A stretch of 64,000 nucleotides of DNA from the NCBI GenBank assembly GCA_000467715.1, contig AJFK01000646.1:1-64000 (forward strand), written 5' to 3'. Source of the stretch: Hysterium pulicare CBS 123377. Its lineage: Eukaryota > Ascomycota > Dothideomycetes > Hysteriales > Hysteriaceae. Positions 9,508-62,297 of the stretch are shown one piece after another (position 1 is the first letter of the stretch; every line of letters starts with the position of its first letter). Made by a program: the position numbers and the translations under genes. The notes under the pieces were generated by a model. The model saw only the letters and a program-made list of their open reading frames with translations. It was not told the DNA's origin and searched no databases.

Positions 9508-12500
9508 ATGACTTCCCTACAGAAGCAGCTTGCGGCCATCGCCGCTTCATCCACGCATCAAGTGGACCTGAAGGCGCAAAAGACTGCTCATGCGAAATCA
9601 CTGCTATTCGAACCCAAGGTCGCTGCCTCGCAGTCTTTTGACGCAATCTATCAGATATGCCATGAAGGATTCTTCGATTTATGCGCCCTAGATGGCCGAT
9701 TCGTCTCATTCTCTTCGACTTTGTTCAGTGAGCAAAGCAAGTCGGAAGACCGGACGCAAATGACACAGAAGGAAAACGAAGAACTTGACTCTGTGCTAGA
9801 AAAATTTCTTATCCTTGTAGGACCTCGCCTACTCTTGAAGCCTGCTTACAAAGCTTTGGAGTGGTTACTCCGACGGTTTCGGTATGTCGGAATTCCAATA
9901 CGTATGCAAGCTTCTGACAGTTTGAAATAGTGTTCACGAGTATAACACCGAGTGTCTGATTTTAACATTCCTACCGTACCATGCGACGCCGCTTTTTCCG
10001 ACCCTCCTCTCAGTCCTACCTGCCCACATATCCCCAACATATCGCTTCTTGGTTCCGTATATCAGTTCAGCGGCAAATCCGCCACGGCAGACAATCATAT
10101 TTACTGCGGCAAATACCCCAGCATTTTTCTCGGCTCTCCAGCGATACACCTTGAAGACCCTAAACAATGGCCATTATGCATCGATCTTCATATCATTTTG
10201 GGCAAGCATAACAACACAAGCAATTGACTCCATGTTGGAGTCCGCACACTCTGGGAGGAAACAGATCCAACAGCAGCGCGAAGAAGAGTTGATTCTTCGT
10301 ATTCTACCTGTCCTGAATGAATGCTTGAGGTTCCGAGCTGTCTCAGAGGCTATCTTGGGTTGCTACATGATTATCACCGTTCTCGTCGCCAAAGCAACTT
10401 TCGAAGATAAGGTTCTCAATGCCCTAATGGAAGCTGTCCTTAGTAGCCATTCTTCTGAGACTTTGGATGGATGCTTAGCTTGTTTGGCTGTGATAGCAGA
10501 GGAGAGGATGGCTGTTGGACTTACTAGTTCGGTAACAAAGCGCATTATGAAAATCGAGAACCTGTCGCAGAGATTGATATCGCTATATCGAGAGTGCCGG
10601 GTTGAACGCCTCGCTCTAGGGTGCGCTTTAGGAGCAATGGAACGTATCGGCGCTGCATCCGATGGCGGGAATGTTCATCTAATTGAGCAGATCCTGACCT
10701 CTGATCTCCTAGGCGACTCCCAGGTCGCACTCACCTTAGAGACCTTGCTGCAGGTCGTCGAGCGTCCTGACACTCACTCAGGCCAAAGTTCAAGAGCTGT
10801 AAGGCAACTTGGTGACCTGCTCTTGCGTTTGAACAAGGTTCCGAGCATGTCACAAAAACTGGAAATGGCGGTCAAAACACACGGTACGAACGTTGAAGAA
10901 CTTGAAGCGAGGCTCGGGACAGATTTTCGCCCTACTGAAGTTCTGAACGGTGTTACAGCGAACGAAGAAGTTATGGAAATAGATGAACCTATGAACACAA
11001 CCGCACAGTCAGGAGATATTCCCTGCTCGGCTGCCATTCCAGCAGTCAATGCCCTTTCGTTCTTAGGAACGGCAGAAGTTGCATTCGAAGAGATCGCTCA
11101 ACGCTTTGCTGAAACGATCATCTCAAGAAGGAACGTGGCTGACTTCTTAAACAACCCAAGATTAGGCAGGACTAGTGCTCTCAGCAAACCACTTTTCCTT
11201 AGCTTTCTTATGCGCATATGGTGTAGTCCGTATCCTACCGTGGTTCGCAATGTGGCCCTGAAATCAGCGACGAAGGTCATTAGAGAGTTTGATAGCCCCC
11301 TTGACCTTCAGGCCTTGATTCCTTATCTCCTATATGCTCTTTCCGATACGCCTCTTGCCATCCGCCGGTCTGCAGCCGAGTGTATAGTCACAATTGCTAG
11401 GATAGCCAAAGAAGACCAACAACCTCACACTGCATCCTGGGGCTCGTCTGCCCTGTATGGGGAGGATTCATCTCAAATCTCTTGGCTCCCTCCCACAGAG
11501 GCTTCAAAATTCTTCTCGTCCATGCTCAATCCTATCCTTGAAGAATGCATCTTGGATTCAAACCACATGGCCCAAGCTATTCGAGAGCTCCTTGACGGTT
11601 CGTCTCCGTCAAGAAGGCACAGTGCCCAATCCACTTCCGCAGGTTTGAAATCCTCGCTGCGGAACTCCTTTATTTCCTTCCTTAGCAAACATGCCACCCT
11701 TACGCCTGTTCTTGGGGTTCGCTTGCGCTTGCTATCAATCCTGAGTGCTCTGGGCAAGGCTGGTATTACTGCTCGCACTGGTATATTATTACCCACGGTC
11801 AGCCAGTGGTGTTCCTTTTCCGAAGAAGATGTTATTGAGAGATGCGAGGCTGAGAGGTTAGACCCGATTCAGACCGACAATCAACATCTCGCGGTGATAC
11901 TGCCCCGTGAGACTGAAGGAATCAGTCTTCTCCAAGCAATTGTCTGCGGCAAAGTTAACCAAAAAAGATGGGCAATCCAGGAACTCGCATTTGAACGGAT
12001 AAATGCAATCTGGCCTTCCTTAAAATCCGACGGAAGATTAACTCTCGCTACTTCACTACTGGACATTGCCCTTGACGAAGACAATATAGACGATAAATTC
12101 CGCCAATTCCGCCGCATAAGTTCGTTAGAAACATTACGTTCTGTAAAGCTATCAACCCCGATTCTGGAATCGTTCATCGACAGCATTCCAAAAGCAATCA
12201 GCTTGGCTGAAAAGGCTCCCCCTGCTAAGCGAAGGAGGATTAGTCAATCTGAGATCTCTCGAATTGAAATCCAATCGCCCGAATATAGTGCCAAAGTTCT
12301 TCGCAGATTGACACTGGTCCTTGAGTTGGTTGAAGCTTCACATCCAGAGCAGCATCCGTCACTGCTCAGAGGCCTCTTTAACATTCTTGGAGACTTACAG
12401 CAATTTAAGCAGCAGTCTGGGTCCAGTCTAGTATACCTTCAAAGCCTCGTCCTTGGCTCGCTTTTACCTATTGTGGACAAATTGAGGGTGAGTTCACCGC

Positions 12501-46347: not shown

Positions 46348-47144
46348 ATGAGATTTGCTCTTCTTCTGGTGGGCACGGCATCTCTCGCCCTCGCTGCACC
46401 AACAGCGACCATCCAAGAACGTGCCTCGGATATTTGTGGGCAATGGGACTCTCAGGTCACTGGGACTTATACACTTTACCAGGTACCCAACCCTATTATC
46501 GATCACAATTGACCTTTCCCTTCTAATATCGTTCCCATTAGGATCTGTGGGGTGAATCGGCAGCTTCATCTGGATCCCAATGCTCTGGCGTGGACGGTCT
46601 GAGTGGCTCGACCTTGAAATGGCACACAAAATGGACCTGGGCCGGAGGCTCCTCCTCCGTAAAATCCTTCGCCAACGCAGTTGTCAAATTGACACCCACG
46701 GCACTCTCATCCCTCTCATCCCTCGCCTCAACTTGGCAGTATAGCTACACCGGCAGCTCCATCATCGCAGACGTAGCATATGACATGTTCACGTCCTCGA
46801 CAGCTTCCGGCTCCGCGCAGTACGAAGTCATGATCTGGCTAGCCGCACTCGGAGGTGCCGGTCCCATCTCTTCTACCGGATCGCCGATTGCGACGCCGAC
46901 GATCGCCGGGAAGAGCTGGAAATTGTTCTATGGGTTGAATGGGAGTATGAAGGTGTATAGCTTTGTTGCTAGCAGCCAGATTACGAGTTTTTCGGGGGAT
47001 TTGTTGGAATTCTTCAAGTATTTGGAGAGTAGTCAGGGTATGAGTAGCAGTCAGATCTTGCAGAGTATTGGCGCAGGGACGGAGCCTTTTACGGGAAGTT
47101 CGGCGGTGTTTACGACGAGTGCTTATAGTGTTGTCGTGAAATAA
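46348..47144 (+). CDS. Secreted GH12 endoglucanase/xyloglucanase
   Basis: Exons 46348-46482 and 46542-47144 flank a 59-bp intron and encode 245 aa. Residues 1-17 are a signal peptide (MRFALLLVGTASLALAA). The mature part is a GH12 beta-jelly roll: CGQWDSQVTGTYTLYQDLWG across the splice, SGVDGLSGSTLKWHTKW, STWQYSYTG and VAYDMFTSS. The nucleophile Glu is in QYEVMIWL and the acid/base Glu in GAGTEPFTG near the C terminus. It would cleave beta-1,4-glucan or xyloglucan in plant cell walls, suggesting a saprotroph or plant-associated host. There is no carbohydrate-binding module or linker; the length is normal for GH12. Confidence 0.93.
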
Positions 47145-51538: not shown

Positions 51539-54025
51539 ATGACATCTTCCTCAATGGATATCGCTCCAACACCTACCCAACAGCAAATGCTGTACTGGGA
51601 TGCTCAAGTTCCATCGCAAATCCCGGGACATCATCTATCATTTCCAGCGACAATCCCACCTCAAGGACATCTACAACAATCTCCGCTCCAACAAAAAGAT
51701 TCTCAGAGCACCTTCTTCGTGGCAGACGCGACACCGATCTTTCGTAACGGAAGTAAAAAGAGAAGGGCTTGCAATGAGTGCAAACAACAGAAGTTAAGAT
51801 GCGACTTGTCCACGCTTGGTACTCAATCCACAGAGTCCTGCTCGAGATGTAAACGACTTAGTCTTGAGTGCCGAATCGATCAACGGTTCATGCGAGAACG
51901 GAAGCGCAAAAGATCCAATGAGCTCGAAAAAGAAGTCGAGTCTTTAAGGCATCAACTCTCTACGCGGTCTGACTCTCAGGGTTCTGGCAGAGGGGAGAGC
52001 GTGGATCCCACCATCGCACCTCAACGCAATCCCAGTGGTAGCGATGCTGGGGGGAGCACCAGCTCTCTGGGGACTTTCCGCAGACCTTCTGATTTATTCT
52101 CAACGACGCTACCTAATATGACATCACCTGATTCAACCCAAGCTACGGATCCTCCCGGCATCACGACTAGGCCCATGCCTGAAATACATCCCGAAGAAGT
52201 CGAGAGTGGTGGAAGGCAACCCAATTGCTCCATTTTGGCTCCCAGGACAGCGAGAACTCTGGGGAGTATCAATCTTTCAGCAGAGGACGTTGATGGTTTA
52301 TTTGCAGAGTAAGCATGGCCAATCTATTACTTCTCAGAAGATTCGTCCTCGATGTTGGGGAGGGTCAAATTGAACCGAACGCCTAATTCTCTGCTCGAAA
52401 TCCTTCGTACAAGGTCTTGATGATTCAAGTGCCTCTTAATTTCGATGAAGTGCCTTCTTAGAGTATTTCTCTTGAGATAGCTGGCAAGGAATTTGAGGTC
52501 TTTTGTACTAATTGCAGCAGGTACTTCACATATTATCACCCCTTTCTGCCGATTTTGGACCCGGGAATCAGTCCAAACCAATACTTCAGTGGATCATCCC
52601 TTCTTTTCTGGTCTATCATATCTGTCGCTTCTCGACGTTATGACGAAGATCCCACGCTTCTAGCAAGACTCGCCCGATCAGTCACGAAACTCACTTGGAA
52701 GAACCTGCAGTCGATTCCCCATTCGAAGAATGTTGTTCAGAGTCTTGCGCTATTATGCACCTGGCCATTTCCCACTAGCAGCAGTACGGCAGACGTAACG
52801 TTCATGTGGGCGGGCACAATGATGCAAATAAGCATTCAAATGGGACTACATCGACCTATGAATCCGCAAGATTTCACCAAATTTCGAATTCAGCTGAATG
52901 ATTCGGAGATATCAGAACGAGTTCGAATTTGGGCTGCCTGCAATATCGTTGCTCAGAGGTAAACAGATCCCCTCCCCGCACAACCACTGTTAGGCGAAAG
53001 CTAATGTCGCCCTGCACAGTGTCAGTGTCGGCACTGGTCTTGCAGCTCCTGTTCAGTATGATTGGGCTTTGATCTCAGGTTCTCGATCCGATTCTCTGGC
53101 TATGAGGCTGGATCCTGGACTTGAATTGCATCTCAGGATTGAGATGTTTCGAGATAACGTCTCACGAACAATGGCCTCGAACTCCTTGGATTCTGTCGGT
53201 CTTTTACCAACGCAAGAGAGACTATCGCTGTACAAGTTATTTCTCAAGGAACTGGAAGGCCTTGAGGGATTTGCAGGAGATATATCCGATGTTAACCGAT
53301 TCTATCTCTATGCCGCTCGACTACATCTACAGGCCTTCTTCCTCTTTGACGAACCGTCATCGGACTCTTACACGGAGCGAATCCTTATGCTCTATTTCAC
53401 CGCCGTGACACTGATTCAGCATACGCTTGATACCAATAGACAGTCTCAGAGTCTCCTCCGTCACTGTCCGTTTTTCCTGTATCAGGTCTTTGTTTCTGCC
53501 TCCTTCGTGGTCCTCAAGCTTCTTCGAAACGAGTACTTCTCTGCTTTCATAGACATGGAAGCAGGGAGAAAGCTTTTTAACGCGTCCGTAAACGCTATTA
53601 GGAAGATGTCAGTTGCGAACAATGATCTACCTGGCCGACTTGCAGACGTTCTTGGATACCTTTGGAGCGACGTTACGCCCCATCTCATCAGCGGCTCAGG
53701 AAAGGAGGGTCTACAGCTTAAGATCCGGAGCCGAATGAGTATGAGTGTCGTGTTCGACTCGCTATGGAAATGGCGAGAACAATTTAGAGCTCAGCCAAGT
53801 AACGACAGTGCCATCGATCAGGACAATGAAGGTACGTGACATATACTTTGGCCAGCTTCCCATGCGATACTAATCCAATTAGATGACCCAACAACTTCAG
53901 AGAGCACAGGGCTCAGTACAGACCCTCTGAATCAAAACATGTTTGAGCCGAACCAGATGCTCTTTGACTCCTTTGGTCCCCTCGACTTCGCATTAGATAG
54001 TATTGACTTTAGCCTAATCAGTTGA
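51539..54025 (+). CDS. Zn2Cys6 transcription factor with fungal-specific TF domain
   Basis: Four exons: 51539-52308, 52521-52958, 53020-53831 and 53883-54025; about 720 aa from the ATG at 51539. The binuclear zinc cluster (about residues 79-112) reads CNECKQQKLRC then CSRCKRLSLEC, with a basic linker and a short coiled coil (ELEKEVESLRHQL). Joining exon 1 to 2 restores LFAEYFTYYHPFLPILDPG, the typical start of the middle homology domain, which continues through IQMGLHRPMNPQDF and AACNIVAQ-SVSVGTGL. The acidic, Phe-rich C terminus (FDSFGPLDFALDSIDFSLIS) suits an activation domain. Intron 1 is 212 bp, much longer than the others. The type resembles the WAR1/PrtT group. Its position beside three enzyme genes suggests a pathway-specific regulator, which is inference. 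Confidence 0.85.
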
Positions 54026-54136: not shown

Positions 54137-55153
54137 TCAAACCTTCGACAGCAATTGACCTCCAGCTGCCGCATCTACAGCCTGCGAATCCTTTAATCCA
54201 ACGGTCTCGAACAATTTCTTCGGAGTGAATTCGCTCTGTAAGCCCGTCTTACCAGTCTCTTTCAACCCAACCAACACCTCTTTCATGGCATAATAAGCCG
54301 GTGCGATAGTCGCGAACGGAAAGATAACAATCCTAAAACCAATATCCTGCGCCTCCTGGGGCGTGATAGTAGGAGTAGCGCCGTGTTCAACCATGTTCAA
54401 CAGCACCGGAGTCGGATGCATAAGTTCACAGATCTTTCTTCCTTCTTCACGCGACGTTAGACCCTCTAGGAATACAACATCCGCACCAGCATCCGCAGCC
54501 GCCTTCAGTCTTTTCGCAGCTTCGTCGAAACCGGAGACTTGGAGGGCGTCAGTTCGGGCGATGATCACGATATCCGAGCCTATTCGTTCTCGAGACTGTG
54601 CTGCTGCTCTTATGCGCGAGCAAAATGTTGGGAGGTCGACGATTTCCTTGCCTCCTAGATGACCGCATCTTTTGGTCTGGATCTGGTCTTCGATATGCAG
54701 GGCGGAGACGCCGGAACGGTGGTAAGCTGCTACGGTCCGAGCGACCATGTTAGGTCCTCCATATCCCGTGTCTGCGTCCGCAATAAGAGGAATTGAAGGA
54801 TCCAGGTTTGCGATCATTTCGGCATGTTCACGCATGTCGTTCAAGGATGCGAATCCCAGATCTGCCTGACCTAGTTTCGAGGCACAGGTTCCGGCTCCTG
54901 TCTTTTTCATTCCAACGCCATTAGCATCTTTCTTTTTTGGGGTTCAAGGAGCACTTTCCCGTACCATGTATAAACAATCAAATCCAACGTCCAACGCTAT
55001 CCTCGCGCTGAACCCATCATATACACCTGGTGCCAACACAATTCTACCACCATTGCTGAAAATCAGATCGCGCAGGCGTCTCTGGGTTGATTGAGGAGTT
55101 GGTAGTGTAGAGCTGCCATCCACGCCGCCGTTTGAGGTCGATAGGAAAGCCAT
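54137..55153 (-). CDS. Isocitrate lyase / PEP mutase superfamily enzyme
   Basis: Exons 55153-54965 and 54901-54137 flank a 63-bp intron and give 317 aa; joining restores CLYMTGAGTCASKLG. The fold is the PEP mutase/isocitrate lyase TIM barrel: IADADTGYGG (metal-binding Asp about 105 and 107), IEDQIQTKRCGHLGGKEI (Cys 142 in the KRCGH loop, the lyase-type catalytic loop) and IIARTDA. KRCGH points to C-C lyases of the methylisocitrate-lyase, dimethylmalate-lyase or oxaloacetate-hydrolase type, or to carboxy-PEP mutase; it is not the NS-type loop of PEP mutase. There is no mitochondrial or peroxisomal signal that I can see. It is convergent with the Zn2Cys6 regulator (111 bp apart). Confidence 0.85.
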
Positions 55154-55951
55154 GAGTAAATTCTCAACACAGGTCTGACGAGTTAATCGTATTCTAAAGA
55201 ATATAGACTGAATATTAGATCTTCAAATATTCTGGTGCTATACCCAAAAATGCTATCTTATATACCCCATATGGTCCCCACTCCAGCCTCCGAAGTCGCA
55301 ATCATCAAGTCGAAGCAGAAAAGCATTCTCATGCTCAACCTTTTTCATCGGATGGAGCTCGTGGCGAAGATGCTCCAGTAGCCCGTGGAACGCCACATCG
55401 GACTTGATTTACTTGCCGAACCGGCCAAAGTACGGAGGCCCATGTGAACCACCGTGTCAAAATCTCTCCTTTACGCATTGAGATATGTGCGATCGGAGTT
55501 TCTCGGAATACTGGCCAGGTCTTCGATGGGGTGCGGGTATTCTGCTTGTATAGTTAAGTCTTTTGTATATCAAACATGCACAGGCTTTGTACACCGAATC
55601 ACTTCCTACATAGTCTTGATTATGGCAATCAGCTTTAATCATTTTTACCGAACCTAAATAATGTCTGTAGAGTCCTGGCACCGAAGTTGATCAGAGTAAA
55701 CAGAGCCAGCAATTATAACTTCTACTTCATCAGGCTTGCAAGGTCAGAAAAAAACATTACGCGCATGGCCTCTTTGGGTGTAAACTTGCATATCAGAAAG
55801 GAAAACTTAAGGCGAAAGCCAGATAGTAGAGGCAAACACGATCACTTACTAAAGTAGAGTAGTGTATAGATGTTAGAATTCGGTGCAGAACCTAACATGG
55901 CCGGAATTAGGTTCCAACAATCAACCAGTCATCCCCGTGTCGGGGTGCCGG
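55154..55951. other. Intergenic region between two cluster genes
   Basis: 798 bp containing the promoter of the lyase-family gene (TATA box at 55257-55264 on the minus strand) and the 3' flank of the three-module gene. No gene is seen. A 23-bp tandem duplication begins at its right end. Confidence 0.5.
55257..55264 (-). promoter_or_regulatory. TATA box of the lyase-family gene
   Basis: TATATAAG on the minus strand about 105 bp upstream of the ATG at 55153. It is a good consensus match at a plausible distance. Confidence 0.5.
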
Positions 55952-55973
55952 TCATCCCCGTGTCGGGGTGCCG
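55928..55973. repeat. Two-copy 23-bp tandem repeat with internal hairpin
   Basis: Perfect head-to-tail copies at 55928-55950 and 55951-55973. Each contains CCCCGTGTCGGGG, a 5-bp inverted repeat with a 3-nt loop. The second copy encodes the last residues and the stop codon of the three-module protein; the first lies just after the stop. Confidence 0.9.
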
Positions 55974-58963
55974 GTGGGCACATCTTCGTCTTCAGTACAT
56001 ATCTTCTCTTCCATCCCCACAAGCCTCAGGATTCGCACAGCGCTCTGCGGAGCAGTCATATTCGTTGTATCGATTTCCCAATAGCTCAAATCAACATCTC
56101 CAGCACACGCTTTCAGATTCAGCAACTCGTGGTCCGCCACAAGGCTCCTCAACACCTCCGGATCCCGCAGTTTCTTCTTCCGTGTTTGATGCCGGTCCGG
56201 ATCCCGAAACCGCGCCAAATGCTGATCCAGGCGACAAGATAGATTGAAACAGAAGAAAGGCACCTTCCTAGCTCTCGCAATCTCCAGATGTTCGGCGAAG
56301 ACAGCAGCATCTTCTTCATTCGCGCCAAGGCATCCGGTCATAATGATTGTGATTGGAGTCGAATCATCTTTAAGTGCATCGAAAGCTGTTTGTCGGAGTT
56401 GGGATCGAAGAGCTTTATTCGATGCTGTCCGGCCTGGGAAAACGGCCTCTGCGAGGTCGATGATGATGTGGTTGTCGATGAGTCGGCTAAGCTCTGGACC
56501 GAGTTTGGAGTGGATGTCTTGGGCTATTGTAAGCTTACCCACTCCAGGGAAGGCATTGAAGAAGATGATGCAGTTCTTCGGTGGTCGCGGTGTCATTTCC
56601 GGTTGACAGGACGCGCTAGTCGGGTCTGTAGAGGGTGTCATAGTGAGGGCAAGATCGGTTTCGCGGAGAGCAATCTGGTGTGTGTGGTGCCAGATGCGTT
56701 GCAAGTGATCCACGACTTCTGGGCGGTTTTTGTAGCCTAAGTAGTCTTCACCAGAATGTTCGCCGTCCGAGAGTGATGATTGTATGAAGTGATGGTAATC
56801 GTTCGCGCTGCTTGCCGAAATACTCCGGATCAACTTCACAAGCGAGGCTGACGCCTGCTCACGTGACTCTACAAGGAGTTCCGAAGAACCGCCGAGATGA
56901 ATATGCGGGACTGTGAGGACATTGAAGACTAGACGCATAAGCATTTCATCCGAGCGCAAGTACTCCTGGCTCTTGACGATAGGGACGACACAGCCGTCTA
57001 CGATGCGTATGCCGCTCCCATCTGCAGCTTGCTCGGCGAAATCCATAGGTACCAGGAGCTTCCGTTCAAAGGGAATTTCTGCATCAATCGCAATACCTTC
57101 CTCTGCCATGATGCGACGGAATGCGCGTTCGAAAATTTCACGACGCTCTGTTGTGACCGCGAAGTCATTGTTGACGAAGACCATGAGGTCGATATCCGAG
57201 AGCAACTTATTATTCTTGCAAATGCAGGAGCCGTATATTACGGCCTGATACTCGGAGTCACCGAAAAAGCGTTGCATAAAGGCCACGAGCTTCTTACTCA
57301 TGGGTAAATCGATCACATCCGTCGATGCATCGCCCAGTACATGATACTTTCGTTCTTGGAGAAGCTGGTTTCCGAGGCTTGTCACTAAATCCAGCAACTG
57401 ATTGACATGAGCCAAAGTTGTCAGCGGATTACCGTTCATCGTGCGTAAAACGTAAACTTGTTGATCATCCCGAAACAGAGCATTTGGGCACCGCTTGAGA
57501 TTGAATCCATGAACATAGCCATTGCCTTCATCAGTGATACGGGTCTTGATGGCATAGTTTATATCATTCAATTTCTCGCAGTCAGCTGCTGACAATCTGG
57601 ATCCAGTATCCGCAACACACTTTTGACACCCCTTAGGAACATACATGAACATGCAAGAGTTGATGTCGGTTTTGTTTAGGAGAACCAAGTCCCCGTTGCT
57701 ACGTATAGCTTCCTGGATTTGCACGGTTAAGTGCAGTCGTTCATCTATCAGGTTCTCGATACCCTCTCGGCCAAACAGTCGAATGGTTGACCAGAGTTTG
57801 AGCGCATCGAAGGCTTTGGATCCGATAAAAGGTGTAACTTGTCCAAGAGACCACTGAGTCTTCAGGATCAAGTCCGAATTTGTTGAAACATTGGCCAGTG
57901 ATTTCGGATCTTTGAACAACACAAAAGAGCACGTATTTGGGATCCAGAGAACTTTGTGGGGGTCGATGGTGACTGAGTCGGCTTTCTCAATACCTTGTAT
58001 TTTGTGTCGATGCGTTCTTGAGAATGCAAGCTGGCTGCCGTGACAAGCATCTACGTGGAACCATACCTGTTTCTGGTGCAGCAGATCGGCAATCGCATCG
58101 AGGTTGTCCACTCGCATTGATCGAGAATCGCCAGCGTACGCTACACAGGCTAAGATGTGTTTACCCTGGGCTCGTTGTTCCTCGATAGTTTGTTCCAAGT
58201 GCGAGAGCTGCATGCAAAATTCTGCATCAACAGGTATCCTCACGACGTTGGCTTCTCCCAGACTGAGCCACGCCATTGCGGAGCGAACCGAATAGTGCTC
58301 AACGACATCTGGTACGAGAACTCGAATGTCTGCTCCACGGAGGGGTAATCCTGTCAGCTTTGACCCAGGAAATGTGTACTCCCGAGCCACCAACAGGGCG
58401 ATTGTATTCGAGAGGCAGCCGCCAAGTGTCAGGATTCCGCCAATCTCTCTTGATGATGAATAGGTCGATTGCCCTTGAAACCCCAACAGTCGACGCAGCC
58501 AATGAACCACCTCCATCTCAATGAATGTAGCCGTTGGCGCACAGATGTCCTGGTTCGCTAGGTTCTGGTTAAGAAAAGGGGTCAAGACCGCAGCACTTAG
58601 CGCAGGCACACTATTACCCGCATCTGGGAAGCCAAGGAAGTTTGGAGAACTCCAGTTTGCGCTTCCGGCAGCAAGTGTCTGGAACTCCTGTAACAGTTTC
58701 TCGTAGGTGATCCCCGAAGAGGGCATATCGTCAAAACTTTTGGTTGTAGGCGTCGGGTCGGCGGTATCTTTGACCTTGGGACGACTCTTGAAGTCTATTC
58801 CTAGCTGGATAACCTGCTCCAGAAAAGACTTCAGCTCCTCCTGAGGAACACCGTTACCAAGAAAATGATGTTCCATGGTTGAATTGAAAGACTGATTGTG
58901 TAGTTGAGTAGACTCACTGAAGCATGGGGGTACGCTACCTTTTATGTTCGGTGAAGCCCTCAT
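55952..58963 (-). CDS. Three-module protein: PLP decarboxylase, nucleotidyltransferase and P-loop kinase
   Basis: One uninterrupted frame of 1,003 aa from the ATG at 58963; the next ATG at 58876 (MEHHFLGNGVP) is an equally likely start. Module 1 (about 35-540) is a complete group II PLP-dependent decarboxylase: LGGCLSNTIALLVARE, His 223 for ring stacking, HVDACHGSQLAFS (Asp 305) and SVTIDPHKVLW with the PLP lysine at 337. Module 2 (about 550-765) is a Pol-beta-type nucleotidyltransferase: VIYGSC (Gly 578, Ser 579), then SDIDLMVF (Asp 590, 592), with a third acidic position near IDAEIPFE. Module 3 (about 797-985) is a P-loop kinase: NAFPGVGKLTIA (Lys 810), LIDNHIIID and IIMTGCLGANEEDAAVF. All catalytic residues look intact. 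The substrate is unknown; amine formation followed by phosphate or nucleotide transfer is inference. No signal peptide is seen. Confidence 0.85.
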   Translation of the reverse strand: MRASPNIKGSVPPCFSESTQLHNQSFNSTMEHHFLGNGVPQEELKSFLEQVIQLGIDFKSRPKVKDTADPTPTTKSFDDMPSSGITYEKLLQEFQTLAAGSANWSSPNFLGFPDAGNSVPALSAAVLTPFLNQNLANQDICAPTATFIEMEVVHWLRRLLGFQGQSTYSSSREIGGILTLGGCLSNTIALLVAREYTFPGSKLTGLPLRGADIRVLVPDVVEHYSVRSAMAWLSLGEANVVRIPVDAEFCMQLSHLEQTIEEQRAQGKHILACVAYAGDSRSMRVDNLDAIADLLHQKQVWFHVDACHGSQLAFSRTHRHKIQGIEKADSVTIDPHKVLWIPNTCSFVLFKDPKSLANVSTNSDLILKTQWSLGQVTPFIGSKAFDALKLWSTIRLFGREGIENLIDERLHLTVQIQEAIRSNGDLVLLNKTDINSCMFMYVPKGCQKCVADTGSRLSAADCEKLNDINYAIKTRITDEGNGYVHGFNLKRCPNALFRDDQQVYVLRTMNGNPLTTLAHVNQLLDLVTSLGNQLLQERKYHVLGDASTDVIDLPMSKKLVAFMQRFFGDSEYQAVIYGSCICKNNKLLSDIDLMVFVNNDFAVTTERREIFERAFRRIMAEEGIAIDAEIPFERKLLVPMDFAEQAADGSGIRIVDGCVVPIVKSQEYLRSDEMLMRLVFNVLTVPHIHLGGSSELLVESREQASASLVKLIRSISASSANDYHHFIQSSLSDGEHSGEDYLGYKNRPEVVDHLQRIWHHTHQIALRETDLALTMTPSTDPTSASCQPEMTPRPPKNCIIFFNAFPGVGKLTIAQDIHSKLGPELSRLIDNHIIIDLAEAVFPGRTASNKALRSQLRQTAFDALKDDSTPITIIMTGCLGANEEDAAVFAEHLEIARARKVPFFCFNLSCRLDQHLARFRDPDRHQTRKKKLRDPEVLRSLVADHELLNLKACAGDVDLSYWEIDTTNMTAPQSAVRILRLVGMEEKICTEDEDVPTGTPTRG

Positions 58964-60927
<1,964 letters not shown>

Positions 60928-62297
60928 TTACGTCTTCCTAGCTATCCAAAATGATGGACGGTAGGTGCTCCTGAGCATACTCTCTGGGTTGGAAATGTAG
61001 CCTGTCTCTATTTTTCCAGTCTCGTGGATCTCAATTGTAAAACCGAAATGCTCGACCAGCTTGATCACCTCTTCATTAGTAAGTTCGACTGATCCGGGTT
61101 CTCCGATCCCAGTATCAGCGGGCCTCGAAGCGCTATCGGACATATCACGATGCTCGTCGCCTGGCTTGCTCCATCTCGAAGCATGGTGCCACAGCAGAGG
61201 GCCTAGATTGACCCAGATGCCTCCAACCGTGAGAGTGTTCCGAACAGCTTCGATATAACGGATCGGGTTTGGTGCCGTGTCGATGAAGAAAACAGTAGCC
61301 ACAGCGTTGAACGATTCGCGGCTTTCCAGAGCTGCGTAAGAAACACAAAAGTCTCCCGAGGACATGCTCATTCGGTCTTCAGCACGGATGTGCGTCATCC
61401 CAGATGCTTTGGCTAGCTCTGTGCCGGGATGTATATCGGGGATGTTGAACGTTTGGAACTGGTCTCTCCTGCTCAGATGATTCGAGCAGTTCAGCGCGAA
61501 TGGAGCGATCTTGAACTCGCCGGTTTGGCTGATGCAGTTCAGAATTAGAGAGCTAGCCATGATCTCATGGTATGAAATCTCATTTCCTTCGACAGAGAAT
61601 CCAGCACGGCAAATGTCAAACACCAGCCGACCTAGGCCTGCGCCCGGTACAAGGACTTTGAAAGTTCCTCTGTCGACTCCACCTGACTGGGAACTGAATG
61701 CAGAGAATTCCAGTTCGAGGGCCTCTAAAATCGGATCGAAACACGCCGCTCGCTCGATGGCACCTTCGGCGCTCCAGTCACGATAGAATTGATTGATACA
61801 GCTTCGTGCTTTTTCGATATCCGTCTGTGTTGTTTCTACTTTCCAGTGGTCGAGAATGGTCGAGTATATTTGGAATTCATCGTGGGCGTACTTCTCGTCT
61901 ATGATTGACGCAACCCATTCACTATCCAGGGTGGGAGCAACAAAAGCTTGGAATCCTACTTTGAAGATGGATTCTGCTAGACGTGCATTTAAATCTATTA
62001 GATCGTCTAGTTCCGAGAGTGAATCGAGGATTGAGAAAGGAGGTTGGGAGAGAAGAGTCCAATGCTCTGATGGGAGAGAGTAGAAGGCTTGACGACGGAC
62101 ATGGGTGGCATTGTAATGTGACAGCCGGCGATACGAACTAATTGCCCCATAACAATGTCAACCGGGATATTGGACAGAATGAAAGAGATTCAGGGGATTG
62201 GTACCGACCGGAAGGACTCTAAGACGGCAAGCAGGTGCTTTTGCTCCTCAGGGTCAGCAAGAGGATCAAAGTCCCCGGTCCGCTCCCCTTCTGCCAT
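60928..62297 (-). CDS. N2227-family methyltransferase (carnosine N-methyltransferase-like)
   Basis: Exons 62297-62209 and 62137-60928 flank a 71-bp intron (62138-62208, unusual GTCGGT donor) and give 432 aa. The start MAEGERTGDFDPLADPEEQK and the joined LESFRSYRRLSHYNATHVRR, then AFYSLPSEHWTLL, are hallmarks of the family. The SAM-binding site is VLVPGAGLGRLVFDICRAGF (about residues 190-210) followed by VEGNEISYHEI. Then come FFIDTAPNPIRYIEA and VGGIWVNLGPLLWH, and the C terminus FWIARK. Animal CARNMT1 methylates the imidazole of carnosine and of histidine in proteins; fungal roles are less clear. It sits 2 kb from the three-module gene on the same strand; functional linkage is possible but this family is also common as a stand-alone gene. 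Much of the frame lacks an internal start codon, so gene finders may truncate it. Confidence 0.88.

What the first reader, a model, noticed from the sequence alone, without database searches (positions are those of the whole stretch)
55952..58963. Decarboxylase, nucleotidyltransferase and kinase fused in one fungal protein
Seen directly: one open frame carries three complete catalytic modules with intact key residues (PLP lysine 337; GS..DxD nucleotidyltransferase motif; Walker A with Lys 810). From family knowledge, group II PLP decarboxylases make amines, MNT-type enzymes transfer NMP and small P-loop kinases transfer phosphate. I know of no standard pathway enzyme with this order. Inference: an amino acid is decarboxylated and the amine or its derivative is then phosphorylated and/or nucleotidylated, formally like a one-protein analogue of the ethanolamine to CDP-ethanolamine route, or the last two modules modify or regulate the first. 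This is the best candidate in the window for an undescribed system.
Basis: partly seen in the sequence, partly recalled or inferred. Interest (0 to 1): 0.82.

Follow-up and report, generated by a model that had tools for sequence, protein, structure and literature searches.

The report
Fungal decarboxylase-nucleotidyltransferase-kinase fusion enzyme
A fungus carries one protein that joins three enzymes, and rare bacteria carry the first two as neighbouring or fused genes, mostly beside an arginyl- or methionyl-tRNA synthetase gene, which suggests an undescribed pathway that makes a small molecule aimed at that part of protein synthesis.

Summary
In detail: 55952-58963 (-) is one 1003-residue frame with a group II PLP-decarboxylase module, an MNT/ANT-like nucleotidyltransferase (NTase) module and a P-loop kinase module. 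Its first two modules belong to a rare bacterial pair. In 22 bacterial loci the same decarboxylase subfamily is encoded upstream of the same NTase on one strand: directly before it in 6, fused to it in the fungal order in 1 (Obscuribacterales), and with a methyltransferase gene between them in 15. All 15 of the last type have an arginyl-tRNA synthetase gene next to them, an extra one in the 12 genomes searched; 2 others have a methionyl-tRNA synthetase gene; 5 Streptomyces-type loci have an APH-type phosphotransferase instead. The decarboxylases have their own active-site signature (AYAGDSR for AGTT; no conserved loop tyrosine), so the chemistry may differ from plain decarboxylation. Best reading: a biosynthetic unit that converts an amino acid and attaches a nucleotide, making a synthetase-directed metabolite; the fungus fused it and added a kinase. 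Target and product are inference; no ArgRS or MetRS was found on the fungal contig. My paper searches found no description.

The parts
55952..58963 (-). whole gene, one open frame, 1003 aa, decarboxylase-NTase-kinase fusion
57356..58858 (-). module 1 (residues 36-536): group II PLP decarboxylase of the Dec-NTase subfamily
   Evidence: Pfam 84-441 E 2.3e-52; 35% over 503 columns to the Streptomyces pair member; 19-row alignment; AF2 model and Foldseek to DfoJ, GAD65, CSAD, E 2e-24 to 1.5e-23 for the best chain of each
58121..58141 (-). AYAGDSR (275-281), subfamily signature where other group II enzymes have AGTT
   Evidence: invariant in 19 of 19; comparison; CYAGDSR in L076
57953..57955 (-). 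K337, PLP-binding lysine (DPHK)
57815..57892 (-). loop residues 358-383, holds no tyrosine; SDLI invariant in 19 of 19; low confidence in the model
56624..57331 (-). module 2 (residues 545-780): MNT/ANT-like nucleotidyltransferase
57188..57232 (-). GS(x9)SDID, residues 578-592, metal/nucleotide motif
57077..57085 (-). D627-A-E629, further acidic residues, D and E invariant in 19 of 19
56732..56752 (-). GEDYLGY (738-744), signature near the C-terminal end of module 2
56003..56578 (-). module 3 (about residues 796-987): P-loop kinase, AAA_18-like
56528..56551 (-). FPGVGKLT, Walker A with K810
60928..62157 (-). neighbour: carnosine N-methyltransferase family gene (PF07942), only match found in the genome; not claimed as part of the system
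54137..55222 (-). neighbour: isocitrate lyase/PEP mutase superfamily gene (two open stretches) with KRCGH and without the mutase motif EDKxxxxxNS; not claimed as part of the system
   Evidence: motif from PMC6697681 passages

Best explanation
The protein is a fused biosynthetic enzyme of a so far undescribed decarboxylase-nucleotidyltransferase (Dec-NTase) kind. Module 1 forms a PLP aldimine with an amino acid and removes its carboxyl group (possibly ending in an aldehyde or other product rather than the plain amine); module 2 transfers an NMP from an NTP to the product or to a partner of it; module 3 adds a phosphate (or recycles the nucleotide). In bacteria the same Dec-NTase unit, unfused or fused, goes with a methyltransferase or an APH-type kinase. 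Most of these loci carry an arginyl- or methionyl-tRNA synthetase gene, so the product is most likely a metabolite that acts on that synthetase (an aminoacyl-adenylate-like antimetabolite), the synthetase in the locus being the producer's insensitive copy. Shown: architecture, homology, gene order, synthetase genes in 17 of 22 loci, a second divergent ArgRS in the 12 genomes searched. Inferred: reaction order, nucleotide, product, target, and that the fungal product is of the same kind.
For: Decarboxylase upstream of the NTase on the same strand, or fused to it, in 18 of the 18 loci with a longer NTase match (L016-L033; the other 3 hits, L034-L036, are 25-residue matches at contig ends), in 3 of 3 plasmid loci and in L076; directly adjacent in 6, fused in 1, methyltransferase between in 15. 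Eight gene junctions printed all show a stop/start overlap (ATGA or GTGA). Same-order fusion of 765 aa in L032. ArgRS in 15 of 15 methyltransferase-bearing loci, the L020 copy passing TIGR00456; the 12 such genomes that could be searched all hold a second, weaker ArgRS match, of which 9 were read as ORFs and are a distinct type, 25-29% identical to the L020 cassette ArgRS. In the family of G013 only 5 of 81 genomes, G013 included, hold the cassette ArgRS type at E 1e-60. MetRS beside L032 and beside the distant L076, both passing TIGR00398. NTase and ArgRS in one open frame in L025. Catalytic NTase residues invariant in 19 of 19. FrbH is a precedent for NMP transfer coupled to decarboxylation (PMC8976061 passages).
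Against: No substrate or activity is known. The fungal locus has no ArgRS or MetRS beside it: the matches of this genome lie on other contigs. Five of 22 bacterial loci (Streptomyces type) have no ArgRS- or MetRS-like frame within the DNA held. Cassette-type ArgRS also occurs where no pair was found (L064, L077 at 71-72% identity; L078, L079 at 56%). The loci are related by descent, so the ArgRS link may be one event; one ancestral MetRS link is not excluded either. A synthetase beside biosynthetic genes can be biosynthetic rather than protective. The G013 genome was not checked for a second MetRS. L076's NTase departs from the C-terminal signatures.
Confidence: 0.5

Rival explanations
1. The synthetase in the locus is part of the synthesis, not of protection: it supplies aminoacyl-AMP or aminoacyl-tRNA (Arg or Met) that the unit converts, as VlmL does in valanimycin synthesis (recalled).
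For: Arg and Met go with different decarboxylase lineages; NTase and ArgRS share one open frame in L025; the cassette ArgRS keeps HVGHLR and KTR[SAT]GG in 15 of 15, so it should be active.
Against: No tRNA-dependent ligase was recognised beside the pair (neighbours were not all scanned); five loci have no ArgRS/MetRS-like frame within the DNA held; the fungal protein has none near; related ArgRS genes stand alone in other genomes.
Confidence: 0.2
2. The unit modifies or guards tRNA (tRNA-Arg or tRNA-Met): the NTase acts on tRNA, and the TadA-like protein and the second synthetase belong to that process.
For: A TadA relative (tRNA-Arg A34 deaminase family, recalled) that lost both cysteines of the zinc site (EP[GN][TI]MSAG) lies upstream, divergent, in 6 loci (the L020 copy matched TadA); synthetases for Arg and Met.
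Against: TadA-like gene recognised in only 6 of 22 loci; a PLP decarboxylase and a fused kinase have no evident place in it. PADLOC gives no strong hit for the pair.
Confidence: 0.12
3. NTase and kinase regulate the decarboxylase by nucleotidylation/phosphorylation of the protein, as MNT antitoxins or GlnE act on proteins.
For: Foldseek places module 2 near AadA, MntA and, further down, GlnE (best E 0.009).
Against: The module carries a conserved C-terminal signature in 19 of 19 (RLxxNxLTxxH, GxDxLGY), whereas the PDB matches to it, short MNTs among them, cover only its N-terminal part; and it sits with a methyltransferase or phosphotransferase gene.
Confidence: 0.12
4. One reading: one-protein analogue of the ethanolamine to CDP-ethanolamine route.
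For: Same formal order of chemistries is possible.
Against: Different NTase and kinase families; decarboxylase subfamily with altered active site; the kinase was found beside none of the 22 bacterial pairs.
Confidence: 0.04

Closest known systems
FrbH (FR-900098 biosynthesis, Streptomyces)
   Same: one protein joins a nucleotidyltransferase and a decarboxylase that work on one small molecule (PMC8976061 and PMC6697681, passages)
   Different: FrbH has the NTase first, of the MobA-like PF12804 kind (PMC6697681), and acts on a phosphonate; here the decarboxylase is first, the NTase is MNT/ANT-like, a kinase follows, and the one PF13714-type neighbour lacks the PEP mutase motif
DfoJ lysine decarboxylase, CSAD/GADL1/GAD65 and diaminobutyrate decarboxylase (group II)
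   Same: fold and PLP site, 22-27% identity in Foldseek alignments
   Different: AYAGDSR replaces AGTT (seen for GAD65, CSAD, GADL1); no conserved loop tyrosine; NCBIfam equivalogs PanP and RhbB score 197 and 165 bits against cut-offs 606 and 900
AadA / MntA nucleotidyltransferases
   Same: GS..DxD core
   Different: own C-terminal half with RLxxNxLTxxH and GxDxLGY; sequence profile match to AadA and MNTs only over about the first 75 positions
Natural-product clusters with a second aminoacyl-tRNA synthetase as self-protection (recalled class)
   Same: divergent second synthetase beside biosynthetic-type genes
   Different: no described ArgRS case came up in my searches

Membership tests
Group II PLP decarboxylase (PF00282) | profile match over the curated cut-off | tested here: met
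   178 bits, cut-off 27
Group II PLP decarboxylase (PF00282) | PLP lysine, HxDA aspartate, stacking histidine (roles recalled) | tested here: met
   K337, D305, H223 invariant in 19 of 19
Group II PLP decarboxylase (PF00282) | AGTT motif and catalytic-loop tyrosine of characterised members (role of the tyrosine recalled) | tested here: not met
   AGDSR in 19 of 19; no Tyr in the fungal loop, and the best loop column has Tyr in 14 of 19
MNT/ANT-like (pol-beta) nucleotidyltransferase | GS(x)nDxD plus further acidic residue | tested here: met
   invariant in 19 of 19
MNT/ANT-like (pol-beta) nucleotidyltransferase | Pfam cut-off / strong fold match | tested here: inconclusive
   under cut-off for the fungal protein; 15 of 19 members match NTP_transf_2 at E 0.01 or better; Foldseek best E 0.009, none under 0.001, the first 26 rows all nucleotidyltransferases
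P-loop kinase, AAA_18 | Walker A and profile match | tested here: inconclusive
   K810 in GVGKLT; 26.4-30.2 bits around a cut-off of 29.4; model of this module not confident
FrbH-type cytidylyltransferase-decarboxylase | MobA-like NTase domain (PF12804) | tested here: not met
   no PF12804 among the listed Pfam matches
Phosphonate biosynthesis cluster | PEP mutase with EDKxxxxxNS next to the gene | tested here: not met
   neighbour at 54.1-55.2 kb matches PF13714 but reads EDQIQTKRCGH
CDP-ethanolamine pathway enzymes | ethanolamine kinase and CTP_transf_like domains | tested here: not met
   no such Pfam match
Biosynthetic cluster protected by a second synthetase | second, divergent synthetase in the same locus (bacterial relatives) | tested here: met
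   ArgRS in 15 and MetRS in 2 of 22 loci; another ArgRS elsewhere in 12 of 12 genomes searched, another MetRS-like gene in the L032 genome, not tested for L076
Biosynthetic cluster protected by a second synthetase | ArgRS or MetRS next to the fungal gene | tested here: not met
   other synthetases not tested
Biosynthetic cluster protected by a second synthetase | second copy insensitive to the product | not testable with these tools
   needs the product

The most novel reading that the evidence does not exclude
A fungus has packed into one polypeptide the synthesis of a nucleotidylated, phosphorylated amino-acid-derived antimetabolite that poisons aminoacyl-tRNA synthetases; bacteria use the same two-enzyme core with ArgRS or MetRS as the matched immune copy, so the synthetase beside each pair tells which amino acid the product imitates.
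Probability: 0.25. Interest if true: 0.9.

Novelty: new variant of a known kind. Interest (0 to 1): 0.7.

Why it matters
It points to an enzyme pair, found here in a fungus, in Actinomycetota and in an Obscuribacterales genome, for which I found no description, with an altered PLP active site, and to a possible class of synthetase inhibitors. I found no described natural-product cluster with an arginyl-tRNA synthetase in my searches. The synthetase gene beside 17 of 22 bacterial pairs makes the target, and the amino acid imitated, directly testable, and the fused fungal protein offers a single polypeptide to assay.

Tried and rejected
Phosphonate cluster: considered because of FrbH and the PEP-mutase-superfamily neighbour; rejected on the missing EDKxxxxxNS motif.

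The carnosine-methyltransferase-family neighbour as the fungal counterpart of the bacterial methyltransferase: left open; it is the only match found in the genome, so more likely an ordinary gene.

Viral contigs: no relative of module 1 or 2. PHROGs: no match for modules 2 and 3. PADLOC: the bacterial methyltransferase matches mad2 at E 8e-11; the other hits are 2e-5 or weaker.

Breadth: NTase profile in 292 genomes of the phylum of L032 gave 2 hits at E 1e-6 (its own genome and one 68-residue match at the limit); in 396 genomes of the phylum of G004, 1 at E 1e-8 (the centre itself). Decarboxylase profile at E 1e-95 in 397 genomes of the order of G013: 1, the centre, with two copies. The tool scored only the best candidates of each genome in these searches (at most 9, 7 and 3), so the pair looks rare but the counts are lower bounds.

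Trees of module 1: fungal, L076 and outgroup rows are long branches. The place of the fungal row is unresolved, so transfer between kingdoms is not claimed. L032 and L076 (the two MetRS loci) do not group in the tree with the fungal row, but one origin of the MetRS link is not ruled out.

AF2: the full-length model has a fair to good decarboxylase and NTase (pTM 0.59, mean pLDDT 67.6) but the kinase is mostly below pLDDT 50; some NTase rows had leaked into the decarboxylase columns of the input alignment. NTase alone: pLDDT 73, pTM 0.76.

An entry in my notebook that the catalytic tyrosine lies in a gap at HYDLSY was wrong; the comparable position is the SYLF tyrosine, aligned to SDLI, and one search shows no conserved tyrosine in the loop.

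One search took the wrong strand for six ArgRS genes; one search corrected it. Arginine-containing cyclodipeptide synthases were looked up because of the third fungal ArgRS-like gene and not followed.
Full report
Observation. The frame at 55952-58963 (-) codes for 1003 residues without a stop. The window lies in a 37.2-Mb assembly of 596 contigs; the neighbours include a carnosine N-methyltransferase family gene whose family gave no hit in 14 prokaryote control genomes. GC by codon position is broadly alike in the three modules. No RNA data were at hand.

Modules. Module 1 is a group II PLP decarboxylase by Pfam (E 2.3e-52) and by fold (Foldseek E 2e-24 to DfoJ; GAD65 and CSAD close behind). 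NCBIfam's nearest equivalogs, PanP and diaminobutyrate decarboxylase, stay far under their cut-offs. Module 2 falls under Pfam's cut-offs, but the profile of 19 relatives finds AadA (E 2.9e-5) and MNT proteins (E 3e-4) among PDB sequences, 15 of 19 members match NTP_transf_2 at E 0.01 or better, and the NTase-only model finds AadA, MntA, AAD(9) and Tam41 first (best E 0.009, none under 0.001). Module 3 is AAA_18-like at the border of the cut-off (26.4 to 30.2 bits against 29.4), has a 30% identical unfused relative in the same genome and relatives on Rhizobium plasmids, with weaker matches on Priestia and Vibrio plasmids; none of the three kinase neighbourhoods with annotation (L014, L066, L067) lists a decarboxylase.

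The bacterial pair. A tblastn search of plasmids with modules 2 and 3 found two Streptomyces plasmids in which a PLP decarboxylase gene ends inside the start of an NTase gene. The two proteins are 35% (503 columns) and 30% (191 columns) identical to modules 1 and 2. A scan of bacterial and archaeal genomes with a three-row NTase alignment gave 21 loci. In all 18 with a longer NTase match (L016-L033) the decarboxylase is encoded upstream on the same strand or fused; L017 holds only its end because the DNA held starts there. L034-L036 are 25-residue matches at contig ends and were left out of the counts. With plasmid loci L012, L013 (same genes) and L015, and with L076 found later, I count 22 bacterial loci: decarboxylase directly before the NTase in 6 (L012, L013, L016, L017, L018, L076), fused in 1 (L032), and a methyltransferase gene between them in 15 (L015, L019-L031, L033). 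They are related by descent, so the count is not one of independent events. The eight gene junctions printed all show a stop/start overlap (decarboxylase/NTase, decarboxylase/methyltransferase or methyltransferase/NTase); some other junctions do not overlap (for example L020, methyltransferase to NTase). L032, from an Obscuribacterales genome assembled from a metagenome, has both modules in one 765-residue protein in the fungal order, without the kinase.

Neighbours of the pair. In the 15 methyltransferase loci an arginyl-tRNA synthetase gene follows the NTase; in L019 it faces the other way and is 61% identical to the L020 copy. The L020 protein passes NCBI's argS model (470 against 262 bits). 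Of the 16 loci whose genomes I asked for, 14 were held. The 12 with the methyltransferase type all have, besides a match at E 2e-106 or better, a weaker second match; of these 12 I read 9 as ORFs, and they are a different ArgRS type (frames of 552-654 codons), 25-29% identical to the L020 cassette copy. As a control, only 5 of 81 genomes in the family of G013 (G013 included) hold the cassette type at E 1e-60, and 1 of 81, G013 itself, holds the decarboxylase at E 1e-100; the sample is drawn evenly from that family and is not matched by genus. In L032 a methionyl-tRNA synthetase gene that passes TIGR00398 (468 against 336 bits) is next to the fusion, and that genome has another MetRS-like gene (C17). 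A second decarboxylase in G013 (L076) turned out to have the NTase overlapping it and, divergent from it, a MetRS gene that passes TIGR00398 (483 bits); this decarboxylase is 33-39% identical to the five others compared, and no methyltransferase hit was found there. The MetRS link thus appears in two distant lineages, though one ancestral origin is not ruled out. Whether G013 has a further MetRS was not tested. The five Streptomyces-type loci (L012, L013, L016-L018) have no ArgRS- or MetRS-like frame in the DNA held, but an APH-type phosphotransferase gene facing the NTase; other synthetase types were not searched in L016-L018. Six loci carry a divergent TadA relative in which both cysteines of the zinc site are replaced, and the histidine in five; the L020 copy was matched to TadA. 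L025 reads from NTase into ArgRS without a stop; this may be one protein or an internal start.

Against this reading. The cassette ArgRS type also occurs where no pair was found in the stretch read: in N. nova (L064, 71%), G356 (L077, 72%, at a contig end), G734 (L078, 56%) and G707 (L079, 56%). G713 also has such a match and was not read. Copies at 53-56% also lie in the Streptomyces anulatus and Streptacidiphilus genomes away from the pair, where they may be ordinary. The fungal contig shows no ArgRS or MetRS match; the genome has three ArgRS-like genes on other contigs.

Active site. All 19 aligned decarboxylases read AYAGDSR where GAD65, CSAD, GADL1 and the Sphaerobacter enzyme read AGTT; L076 has CYAGDSR. 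Another decarboxylase of the same fungus (L002) reads AGTT. In the loop after the PLP lysine the GAD65 SYLF aligns to SDLI; the fungal loop has no tyrosine and the best loop column has Tyr in 14 of 19. From family knowledge (recalled), losing the loop tyrosine turns plain decarboxylation toward oxidative products, so module 1 may make an aldehyde or another product. L076's NTase keeps GS..SDLD but not the C-terminal RLxxNxLT and GxDxLGY signatures.

Mechanism. I hold it likely that module 1 removes the carboxyl group of an amino acid, module 2 transfers an NMP and module 3 phosphorylates, as a chain on one product. The synthetase genes suggest a synthetase-directed metabolite with a protected copy (0.5). 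The alternative that the synthetase supplies an activated amino acid has about 0.2, a tRNA-directed role 0.12, self-regulation 0.12, the CDP-ethanolamine analogy 0.04. For the fungus itself the target is inference by homology.

Known work. FrbH couples cytidylyl transfer and decarboxylation in one protein (PMC8976061 and PMC6697681, passages read); its NTase is of another family and order. Ten paper searches were made; apart from passages of those two papers and one of PMC11055893 I saw listings only. None of the listed papers describes the pair, the fusion or an ArgRS-protected cluster by title or abstract start; one listing (PMC7076788) concerns destruxin A and silkworm ArgRS. One search listed 15 of 30 papers. 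Subscription journals are mostly not held.

Noticed in passing
L076 7490-11602 (Nocardia neocaledoniensis genome G013, C6): A second, distant Dec-NTase pair with a divergent MetRS gene in a genome that also has the ArgRS-type cassette.
   Followed up: partly
L020 6850-7338, also L021, L022, L025, L030, L033: TadA-like gene that lost both zinc-site cysteines (EP[GN][TI]MSAG), divergent upstream of the cassette; reminiscent of inactive ADAT3.
   Followed up: partly
L025 9935-12493: NTase and ArgRS in one open frame (852 aa) in Actinoalloteichus spitiensis.
   Followed up: no
L045 3475-5073 (fungal genome C361): Third ArgRS-like gene of the fungal genome with altered HIGH (FQGKH) and KMSK regions; whether a third copy is usual in fungi was not testable.
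   Followed up: partly
L064 about 10079-12112 (N. nova, C27); L077, L078, L079: ArgRS genes related to the cassette type without the decarboxylase-NTase pair in the stretch read.
   Followed up: partly
L010 1411-2049 (fungal genome C577): Unfused relative of the kinase module, 30% identical, with the same NAFPGxGKLT motif.
   Followed up: partly
L034-L036 (Streptomyces rubellomurinus contig ends); plasmid hits H27-H29: Short matches to the NTase C-terminal part only (25 and 45 residues), at contig ends or within 30 kb of a record end; perhaps a linear-replicon end repeat.
   Followed up: no
window 46542-47144: Glycosyl hydrolase family 12 match (E 6e-49).
   Followed up: no
window 51539-53839: Zn2Cys6-type regulator gene by eye (its C-terminal stretch gave no Pfam match), 2 kb from the fusion gene.
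   Followed up: no
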